This document shows, piece by piece, positions 40,103 to 41,613 of a stretch of 64,000 bases of DNA; the stretch's first letter is position 1, and the number at the start of each line of letters is the position of its first letter. The notes under the pieces are model-generated. The model ran no database searches. It was not told the DNA's origin and saw only the letters and a program-made list of their open reading frames with translations. Source of the DNA: Termitomyces sp. T153 (Eukaryota > Basidiomycota > Agaricomycetes > Agaricales > Lyophyllaceae); the NCBI GenBank assembly GCA_018296165.2, contig JACKQL020000116.1:1-64000 (forward strand). The letters are read 5' to 3'. The position numbers were made by a program, and so were the translations under genes.

Positions 40103-41613
40103 TTGTTGGCAGCAGTGGCAGCCCCTTTGGGGCCTACATTGGGGGAGGTTCCAGCACAGTTGGCGTGGGAGATGGTCCTCACTTCTCGCTCCAGGTCTGG
40201 TATGGCTTCTAGGGTGGTCCGCCCTGTCCCTATGGGGTCAAGAGTCACGCAGGCGGACATGATGCCAGAGTACTTTGCAGAGGCCATGGGGTGAGCAAGA
40301 GGTCCCCCGACATTGCAGTGGTGTCAGGCGGTGGCCCCAGTGCATCATTGGCATGTTCCTTCTCTATCAAACTAACCCACATTTCTAGTGCGCATCCTGT
40401 ACCCGGTGGGGTGAACAGTGCGAGTTTGAGGAGCCCATGCTGGGAGTGTGGCAGGATACGTCAGTGTGTCTCCTATGTCACTTGCGGCACAAGAAGTGCT
40501 CTGTCACTCTGAGTTGGCGTGCTGCTTGCATTGTGGCAGAACAGGGGTGGGATCGTGGGTGGGTTGCAATGCAGTTGGAGGAGGGTTGGAGGGGCAGGGT
40601 CTCAGGGAGGGGTTCTGGGGTAGAGGGGGGGTTGGTGCGGGGCGGCCTCTAATGAAGATTGGGCTCCTGTGGAGTGGGCAGAGGAAGGGGGCCCCCACAA
40701 TGCATGACAAGGGTAAATGGAGAGCATCCCCCTTGCTGAAGGCAGGGCCTAGCAAGCGGGCATGGGGGGAGCTGGTGTTGGTGGGCCCTCCCAGTCCTAC
40801 AGTATATTCCCCAACTTCTGGGACCTTGGTTGAGCCATCTGTGGGAGGGTCATGGTCGATTGTTGAGGCTTTTCTGTGGCATCGGGCAGAGGAGTTGGAG
40901 AGGTTGTTGGCCACATGTGGGGAGGAAGTCTGTAGGGTGGGGGAGGAGAGGGACAGGTTTCAGAGGGAACTGGACAAGGCTCAGAAGGAATGGGACTTGG
41001 CACATAGGGATAAAGATATCACTATGGGGACTGCCACGGAGTGACTGTTGCAGCTTCAAGAGTTGTGAGCATGCATGAGGCCATTGAAGGTGCGGGCGCA
41101 GGTGGCAGGGCAATGATCAGAGGGGTTGGGAATGCAGGGAACTTAGCAGGGGCCCAGTGCAGAGGTGACCCAAGTGAAAGCGGAGAGGGTGCGGCGGTGG
41201 GAAGAGTGGCTTGCCAACGAGGTGGCCTTGGGGTGGCAGGGAGTGCTCTGTAAGTGCTCCCTTCATTTCCCGTTTACTATGAGCTGACATTTGATTCCAT
41301 AGACTGGGCCAGGGAGCATTGCATTCTCCTCAACAGAGCATCAGCAGTGCTGGAGTCCATTCACAACAGGCTGGTGAGGATGCCCGGGGATCTCCCACCA
41401 GAGTTGGGGCAGAGGGTCATGCAGATGGGGCATTTGCTAGCAGGACATCGGCAGAGGGCAATGGCAGACCCTAGAGCGTGGTGGAAGGTGGCGGTGGATG
41501 TGGTGGAGCTGCTCCCAGGGCATCCTGAAGTCCTGGCAACAGTAGTAGCACAGCTGGAGGTGGATCTGGTGGAAAGGATTGCGGAGGCAGACTCAGGGGG
41601 GGAGGGGGAGTAG
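40103..41613 (+). pseudogene. Antisense accessory gene of element A: double CX2CX6C, coiled coil, spliced
   Basis: Transcribed opposite to gag-pol, between pol and the 3' LTR. Exon 1 ends 'MPEYFAEAMG' at a GTGAGC donor (40291). The intron 40291-40388 has a CTAAC branch sequence and TTTCTAG. Exon 2 opens with CASCTRWGEQC, 15 residues, then CLLCHLRHKKC: two CX2CX6C units as in Zn(II)2Cys6 clusters. Then come a basic KGKWRASP block, a coiled-coil stretch ('HRAEELERLLATCGEEV', 'RDRFQRELDKAQKEWDLAH') and 'RRWEEWLANEVALGWQGVL'. The intron 41250-41302 (GTAAGT...CCATAG) joins in frame to exon 3, a helical C-terminus ending at 41613. One frame change (about 40655-40680) and stops near 41042 break it, and the phase of the first intron is unresolved. 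The presence of the same gene in copies B, C and F indicates it belongs to the element. A nucleic-acid-binding role is inferred from the cysteines only. Confidence 0.65.

What the first reader, a model, noticed from the sequence alone, without database searches (positions are those of the whole stretch)
40103..41613. Intron-containing antisense gene with a double CX2CX6C motif carried by an LTR chromovirus
Between pol and the 3' LTR of element A, on the opposite strand, lies a spliced gene. Its order is a short first exon, CX2CX6C - 15 residues - CX2CX6C, a KGKWRASP block, a coiled coil, a 'RRWEEWLANE' block and a helical last exon. The same gene, in the same place and orientation, is recognisable in copies B (21266-22350), C (37700-38778 plus 49040-49500) and F (57006-57578 plus 62632-63400). 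Intron positions are shared. Introns survive because the element genome is transcribed from the other strand. Antisense ORFs are known in some plant LTR elements (for example Grande), but I know of no described Zn-cluster protein of this layout in fungal Tf1/sushi-like elements. It might regulate the element's own LTR or host chromatin. That role is inference.
Basis: partly seen in the sequence, partly recalled or inferred. Interest (0 to 1): 0.88.

Follow-up and report, generated by a model that had tools for sequence, protein, structure and literature searches.

The report
Spliced antisense gene in a retrotransposon
A family of jumping genes in a termite-farmed mushroom carries, on its opposite strand, an extra gene that still contains introns and is kept by natural selection, probably coding for a small DNA-binding protein that the jumping gene uses to control itself.

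Summary
On the + strand, between the chromodomain end of pol and the 3' LTR of a Tf1/sushi-like chromovirus (element on the - strand), lies a four-exon gene; in the window it spans 39915-41613. The window copy is dead (stops, a frame break). The host is a Termitomyces or close kin (inferred). In its 72-Mb genome the gene has the same place and orientation in 45 of 48 fetched loci; the other three end too soon. Between five diverged families it shows purifying selection (dN/dS 0.24-0.33), while transversions within family A show none. Splice donor, branch point and acceptor are conserved in introns that are otherwise unalike. Intact copies exist beside long open pol frames. The 514-residue protein has two CX2CX6C motifs resembling the halves of a fungal Zn2Cys6 cluster in swapped order, an NLS-like block and a long coiled coil. 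Antisense genes in this slot are known in plant Retand/Grande elements and in HTLV-1 (HBZ). I found none reported for fungi, nor this protein outside Termitomyces, within the stated searches. Regulation of the element's own transcription is the likeliest function but is inferred.

The parts
39915..40046 (+). exon 1 of the antisense gene, element A copy (start codon at 39915)
   Evidence: tblastn of exon 1 (residues 1-37 at 39915-40025); donor GT at 40047
40047..40100 (+). intron 1, 54 nt, phase 1 (GTAAGT..CAG); no branch-like motif in this copy
40101..40339 (+). exon 2 (carries conserved Cys116 in P0045 numbering)
   Evidence: tblastn 40103-40339
40340..40388 (+). intron 2, 49 nt, phase 0, branch-like CTAAC
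   Evidence: same place in families B, C, F and P with GT..AG
40389..41249 (+). exon 3: CX2CX6C-15-CX2CX6C, NLS-like block, coiled coil; frame broken in this copy
   Evidence: two tblastn segments in different frames, 40389-40697 and 40619-41248
41250..41302 (+). intron 3, 53 nt, phase 1, branch-like CTGAC
41303..41613 (+). exon 4, helical C-terminus, stop at 41611-41613
42113..45875 (-). pol of element A (protease to integrase SH3 part); the chromodomain follows down to about 41860
   Evidence: tblastn with the L054 pol; Pfam RVT_1, RNaseH, Integrase_H2C2, SH3_Tf2-1, Chromo on other family members
38779..39705 (-). 3' LTR of element A (92% identical to the other LTR)
   Evidence: 5-bp target duplication CAGTG
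48113..49039 (-). 5' LTR of element A
21373..22682 (-). copy B of the antisense gene (exon 1 22575-22682, exon 2 22282-22518, exon 3 21373-22164)
   Evidence: introns
49038..49638 (-). copy C, 5' part (exons 1, 2 and the start of exon 3)
37750..38771 (-). copy C, 3' part (rest of exon 3, exon 4); element A is inserted between the two parts
62850..63537 (-). copy F, 5' part (exon 2 63304-63537, exon 3 62850-63254)
57060..57436 (-). copy F, 3' part (end of exon 3, exon 4)
1319..1695 (-). further partial copy (end of exon 3, exon 4)
4..126 (-). exon 1 of a copy that runs off the left edge of the window

Best explanation
Shown: a clade of Tf1/sushi-like chromoviruses in this Termitomyces-like genome carries, antisense between the chromodomain and the 3' LTR, a four-exon gene for a protein of about 514 residues. 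It has been kept by purifying selection in the replicating lineages and decays freely in dead copies. Inferred: the gene is transcribed from the 3' LTR side towards pol and spliced. Its introns persist because the genomic RNA that is reverse transcribed is the other strand. The product is a nuclear, coiled-coil-paired DNA-binding protein. Its two CX2CX6C motifs correspond to the two halves of a Zn(II)2Cys6 cluster in swapped order. It most likely binds the LTR and tunes sense transcription of the element in trans, working like the antisense regulators of some retroviruses (HBZ).
For: Place: pol on the opposite strand, 502-583 bp past the gene's end, in 45 of 48 fetched loci (the other three end too soon); LTR on the start-codon side in the expected orientation within 186-303 bp in 29 of 48. 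60 of 70 best pol hits have an exon 3 hit 558-645 bp away on the opposite strand and 0 on the same strand; 4 of the 10 misses, all that I looked at, carry it too. Coding: A-P dN/dS 0.24, zero-fold against four-fold transversions 0.047 against 0.197; between-family pairs 0.24-0.32 and 0.24-0.33, the other five frames 0.39-1.23. Within A, transversions show no constraint (0.015 against 0.012). Pol control A-P 0.12. Splicing: of 27 introns 20 begin GT, 7 AT (as after CpG loss at C|GT), 26 end AG, 24 have a branch-like motif against 6.0 +/- 2.1 in shuffles. Intact: 54 of 113 exon hits stop-free (hand count); L054 and L055 have 0 stops in 506 codons. Zn_clus is the commonest Pfam match (22 of 38 models at E up to 10); a 42-residue piece of L055 scores 21.8 against the cut-off 21, in two stretches. 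Coiled coil: helix 273-368, mean pLDDT 81-93 over residues 281-360.
Against: No RNA or protein evidence was available. The zinc region is unresolved in the model (pLDDT about 40). No full-length protein scanned reaches the Zn_clus cut-off, and 16 of 38 models have no Zn_clus match even at E 10. No solved structure matches convincingly. No DNA target is known. Nothing here shows a promoter in the LTR. Raw within-A dN/dS is 0.49, not 1, so 'no constraint' rests on transversions. Gag already has a zinc knuckle, which weakens but does not exclude a nucleocapsid-like role.
Confidence: 0.5

Rival explanations
1. The protein is a real element protein but acts elsewhere: on integration targeting, on the particle or on packaging, or against host silencing, rather than on the element's transcription.
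For: Selection shows a useful protein, not which use. Coiled coil and Cys motifs fit a tether or adaptor as well. The element already carries a chromodomain, the kind of module used for targeting (use recalled).
Against: An NLS-like basic block (KR..KRAR pattern in 18 of 128 held models) and similarity to a DNA-binding cluster favour DNA binding; Gag has its own CCHC knuckle.
Confidence: 0.33
2. The antisense transcript, not the protein, is what matters: it pairs with the genomic RNA or feeds RNA silencing.
For: Antisense RNAs restrain Ty1 and perhaps Tf2, and an RNAi pathway in Cryptococcus represses intron-containing DNA transposons (passages of PMC7175516); the same idea is voiced for plant antisense ORFs (passages of PMC7264820).
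Against: An RNA role does not explain codon-frame-specific constraint in all four exons (A-P 0.14-0.30), a stop-free frame in young copies, or conserved splice signals.
Confidence: 0.08
3. A passenger: a captured host gene or an insertion carried along without function.
For: 39 of 40 family-A copies have at least one in-frame stop; within-family transversions are unconstrained.
Against: dN/dS 0.24-0.33 between five families, fixed place and orientation, intact young copies.
Confidence: 0.03
4. The apparent constraint comes from a sense-strand gene on the element's own strand.
For: GC-rich sense-strand open frames of 245, 262 and 306 residues overlap the gene in L054 and L055; the sense frame whose third positions coincide has dN/dS 0.39-0.57.
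Against: The antisense frame is lower in all six family comparisons and all four exons, and over exons 3-4 the sense frames carry 3-5 stops in L054 and L055; introns and splice signals fit the antisense strand.
Confidence: 0.02

Closest known systems
Antisense additional ORFs between pol and 3' LTR of plant Gypsy elements (Retand, Grande gene23, RIRE2; TRP28 proteins)
   Same: Same place and orientation; lineage-wide; predicted DNA-binding product; the papers propose a regulatory role (abstract and Discussion of PMC11963269; passages of PMC7264820).
   Different: Retand is a non-chromovirus plant lineage; the word 'intron' does not occur in the main text of either paper; no TRP28-like Pfam match here. 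Here: fungal chromovirus, three introns, Cys motifs plus coiled coil.
HBZ of HTLV-1 (and APH-2 of HTLV-2)
   Same: Antisense gene with a nuclear product, and an antisense promoter in the 3' LTR of HTLV (passages). Splicing of HBZ, its bZIP domain and its effect on the 5' LTR are recalled, not from a call.
   Different: No bZIP match here; Cys motifs instead; a retrotransposon rather than a retrovirus; no expression data.
Fungal Zn(II)2Cys6 (Gal4-type) transcription factors, Pfam PF00172
   Same: Two CX2CX6C units; a coiled coil further on. Unit 1 with the conserved Cys just before it matches profile 13-35, unit 2 matches 2-14.
   Different: The halves are in swapped order with a 15-residue spacer and a further conserved Cys (168); full-length proteins stay below the cut-off; carried by a mobile element.
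Tf1/sushi-type fungal chromoviruses
   Same: gag with CCHC knuckle, protease-like, RT, RNase H, integrase, SH3_Tf2-1, chromodomain.
   Different: About 2.1 kb between the chromodomain and the 3' LTR holding the antisense gene.

Membership tests
Tf1/sushi-like chromovirus | RT, RNase H, H2C2 integrase, Tf2-1-like SH3, chromodomain in pol | tested here: met
   Pfam hits above cut-off: RVT_1 2.8e-41, RT_RNaseH 1.5e-35, Integrase_H2C2 2.7e-23, SH3_Tf2-1 3.5e-16 in L054; Chromo 1e-15 in L009
Tf1/sushi-like chromovirus | LTR pair and target-site duplication | tested here: met
   92% identical LTRs of element A and 5-bp CAGTG duplication
Zn(II)2Cys6 (PF00172) | two CX2CX6C-type units | tested here: met
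   40 of 128 held models contain both units, span 37 residues in all 40 (many of the other models are partial); the six Cys are each kept in 7-9 of 9 divergent copies
Zn(II)2Cys6 (PF00172) | halves in the canonical order as one domain above the curated score | tested here: not met
   In 10 models whose best stretch was seen, 6 place unit 1 on profile 13-35 and 4 place unit 2 on profile 2-14/15, i.e. swapped; best full-length model 18.5 bits against 21; only a 42-residue piece of L055 reaches 21.8, as two stretches
Zn(II)2Cys6 (PF00172) | short linker of about 5-12 residues between units (recalled) | tested here: not met
   15 residues in all 40 models with both units
Zn(II)2Cys6 (PF00172) | binds two zinc ions and DNA | not testable with these tools
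   needs protein; the model leaves the region unresolved
[quoted passage not shown]
Plant Retand-type antisense ORF | TRP28 domain | tested here: not met
   no such Pfam match at E up to 10; that Pfam holds the domain is recalled
HBZ-type antisense retroviral regulator | bZIP domain | tested here: not met
   no bZIP match in Pfam at E up to 10
HBZ-type antisense retroviral regulator | antisense promoter in the 3' LTR and an effect on sense transcription | not testable with these tools
   no RNA data or reporter

The most novel reading that the evidence does not exclude
A fungal LTR retrotransposon clade encodes its own spliced antisense transcription factor with a circularly swapped zinc-cluster domain. 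That would be an independent third origin, beside plant Retand-type elements and HTLV-like retroviruses, of an antisense regulator gene placed before the 3' LTR, and a case in which a retroelement keeps spliceosomal introns through reverse transcription because the gene runs against its genome.
Probability: 0.45. Interest if true: 0.87.

Novelty: new variant of a known kind. Interest (0 to 1): 0.74.

Why it matters
Antisense genes of LTR elements have been argued for in plants, but their function is open. Here an unrelated protein in another kingdom occupies the same slot, with introns, measurable purifying selection, many intact copies and a culturable basidiomycete genus. That makes the question whether such elements encode self-regulators directly testable. 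At least 120 'hypothetical protein' entries of Termitomyces annotations (those listed of 174 hits) are relatives of this retrotransposon gene.

Tried and rejected
Rejected: a chance ORF; constraint from a sense-strand gene; passenger or host-gene capture; the antisense protein as a substitute nucleocapsid (Gag has CILCGEQGHFIRNC). Contig ends near the gene in several contigs suggested a telomeric preference, but L055 begins inside an LTR, so they look like assembly breaks.

Led nowhere: PDB searches (P0013: 2 hits, E 0.14 and 2.6; profile A3: 0 hits); NCBIfam (5 proteins, 1 irrelevant hit); AlphaFold model of the Cys region (pLDDT about 40), so I made no fold search with it. Homologues outside Termitomyces: 42 of 42 hits, the 120 listed of 174 (54 not shown) and 1 of 1 are Termitomyces. 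The search needs shared 5-residue words, so distant relatives may be missed.

Caveats: threads codons by protein alignment, which can join wrong frames in decayed copies (seen) and inflates within-A dN; one search repeats the test on a nucleotide alignment. An earlier intron count (25 introns) left out two introns without good reason (winC i3, which lacks AG, and winF2 i3); one search puts them back and is the one quoted. Still left out of the 35 junction rows (32 plus three of window copy A): L050 i3 and L051 i1 (exon match too short), and from the count of 27 the six of L054 and L056, near duplicates of L055; with these six the count is 33: GT 26, AT 7, AG 32, branch-like 29 against 6.7 +/- 2.3. 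The null shuffles intron interiors only. In one search the counts of non-3n indels include intron length differences, so I do not use them. In single exons another frame can have slightly fewer stops (exons 1 and 2).

Full report
What is there. The window lies in a 72.4-Mb, 307-contig genome that is held unnamed. All protein relatives listed are from Termitomyces sp. T112, Mn162 and J132, and a Mn162 model (P0013, residues 67-361) matches a place in this genome at 96%, so the host is a Termitomyces or very close kin (inference; Lyophyllaceae). Element A is an LTR element on the - strand with LTRs at 38779-39705 and 48113-49039 (92% identical) and a 5-bp duplication CAGTG. Family members have the Pfam domains of a Tf1/Tf2-like chromovirus, chromodomain included. 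Element A sits inside exon 3 of the antisense gene of another copy, C.

Gene model. The Termitomyces J132 model P0045 (514 residues) maps to four blocks of window copy A with GT..AG between them: exons 39915-40046, 40101-40339, 40389-41249 and 41303-41613; introns of 54, 49 and 53 nt. The codon read there as TGA is Q in 17, R in 15, L in 1 and a stop in 6 of the 39 other family-A copies, and the stretch to 40339 (..ARGPPTLEWCQAVAP) aligns as protein in families B, C, F and P. The window copy is broken: 6 stops and exon 3 matches in two frames.

Association with the element. In 48 loci examined (L009-L056), pol lies on the opposite strand 502-583 bp past the gene's 3' end in 45 of 48. The three exceptions (L010, L050, L051) have under 500 bp of sequence left on that side. 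An LTR in the expected orientation lies 186-303 bp before the aligned start in 29 of 48 by my count of that table (L011 among them is ambiguous; 210-215 where the alignment reaches the Met). The other 19 have an LTR farther off, only in the other orientation, or none detected with the element A LTR as query. Independently, the 70 scored pol hits of the genome and the 113 scored exon 3 hits were compared by position: 60 of 70 pol hits have an exon 3 hit on the opposite strand at 558-645 bp, 0 on the same strand. I fetched 4 of the 10 misses; all 4 carry the gene in interrupted or lower-scoring form, 6 were not looked at. The Ty1/copia element at 26063-31291 of the window has no match to the gene.

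Selection. On a nucleotide alignment with the exons of natural copy L055 as frame, family A against family P (120 pairs) gives dN 0.242, dS 1.021, ratio 0.24 (range 0.20-0.33). Differences per codon position are 0.218, 0.231, 0.444; transversions 0.047 at zero-fold and 0.197 at four-fold sites; introns differ at 0.44-0.57 of sites. Family A against itself (780 pairs) shows zero-fold 0.015 against four-fold 0.012, that is, no constraint on transversions after insertion; its raw ratio is 0.49, which I ascribe to the transition-heavy decay. A protein-threaded version over five families gives 0.24-0.32 for the ten between-family pairs. Of six frames tested in six family comparisons, the antisense frame is lowest in each (0.24-0.33). 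The other five lie at 0.39-1.23 over the whole gene, the lowest of them (0.39-0.57) being the sense frame whose third positions coincide; in single exons they lie at 0.30-2.01. Per exon, A-P ratios of the antisense frame are 0.14, 0.30, 0.26 and 0.25. Pol between A and P gives 0.12, so the antisense gene is under weaker but clear constraint.

Splicing. In 27 introns from families A, B, C, F and P (rows left out are told under Tried and rejected), 20 begin GT and 7 begin AT, as expected when the C|GT junction loses its CpG; 26 end AG (winC intron 3 does not); and 24 have a YTRAY branch-like motif 8-30 nt before the acceptor, against 6.0 +/- 2.1 (maximum 15 in 2000 shuffles) by chance. Lengths are 46-54 nt and phases are shared. 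No RNA was examined, so splicing itself is inferred.

Young intact copies. Of 113 scored exon 3 hits 54 have no stop (my hand count). L054 and L055 have none in 506 codons of the gene, L056 two. On the opposite strand pol is open over 1191 codons in L054, at least 625 in L055 and 434 plus 532 in L056, and the copy at C2 (L061/L054) has LTRs 98.6% alike and an 889-codon open gag frame with a CCHC knuckle near its end. The first look counted 2124 candidate places, not all scored.

The protein. Cysteines 116, 122, 125, 132, 148, 151, 158 and 168 (P0045 numbering) are each kept in 7-9 of 9 divergent copies. The two CX2CX6C units span 37 residues in 40 of 40 models that have both, among 128 held. 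Pfam's commonest weak match is Zn_clus (22 of 38 members at E up to 10, best E 0.0022 and 18.5 bits, below the cut-off of 21). In the 10 models whose best stretch I saw, 6 place Cys116 plus the first unit on profile 13-35 (third to sixth Cys of the classical cluster by my reading) and 4 place the second unit on profile 2-14/15 (first to third). A 42-residue piece of L055 scores 21.8 against the cut-off of 21, in two stretches. I read this as a Zn2Cys6-like cluster with swapped halves; it is not a member of that family by the order test. The AlphaFold model is poor overall (mean pLDDT 51) but gives a long helix, 273-368, with mean pLDDT 81-93 over 281-360. A KR..KRAR block (for example KGKRRASPSPEAGPSKRARG in L055) resembles a bipartite nuclear signal (recalled pattern). 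In 5 of 128 models the second unit has been predicted away as an intron, which may be annotation error or alternative splicing.

How it may work. Shown: an element gene, antisense, intron-bearing by its signals, selected as protein. Inferred: transcribed from the LTR side, nuclear, paired through the coiled coil, DNA-binding, acting on the LTR in trans. An element whose dead copies still serve as binding sites or antisense sources would have reason to carry such a regulator, but whether it activates or represses cannot be told from sequence.

Known relatives. Plant Retand-type elements carry antisense ORFs in the same slot, with DNA-binding predictions and an unknown function (abstract, Discussion and passages of PMC11963269; passages of PMC7264820). 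HTLV-1 HBZ is cited there as the retroviral parallel. I found no fungal case in the listings of searches of an open-access library, nor in passages of PMC3248453 on fungal LTR elements ('antisense' 0 times). Subscription papers were not searched.

Noticed in passing
13231-13317, 17402-17488, 34450-34536 and the ends of element A LTRs (38779-, 48113-): A block of about 55-87 nt at one end of the LTRs is far better conserved between diverged LTR families (up to 94% over 55 nt) than the rest. In element orientation it follows a TATAAA-like site (L055) and ends the LTR, so it may be the R-U5 leader; function not tested.
   Followed up: partly
38771-49039: Element A (TGTCA..TGACA, duplication CAGTG) is inserted in exon 3 of the antisense gene of element C.
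   Followed up: yes
26063-31291: A Ty1/copia element (Retrotran_gag_2, gag_pre-integrs, rve matches) with a 241-nt terminal repeat 93% alike; no match to the antisense gene.
   Followed up: partly
2868-4709 (-): A 614-residue open frame with a weak match to a Tle1-like phospholipase domain (E 0.0068, below cut-off).
   Followed up: no
Termitomyces models P0015, P0023, P0032, P0037, P0079: Gene predictors splice out the second CX2CX6C unit in frame (5 of 128 held models). It could be an annotation error or an alternative form without the second half of the cluster.
   Followed up: no
family A copies L009-L047: Strong CpG loss: donors C|GT become C|AT, and R codons become W, Q or stop. This suggests methylation-linked decay of old copies.
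   Followed up: partly
G000 contigs C10, C112, C241, C289, C109, C181 (start), C62 (end): Several contigs begin or end about 1.6 kb from the gene; the one read, C10, begins inside the young LTR: probably assembly breaks at near-identical repeats.
   Followed up: partly
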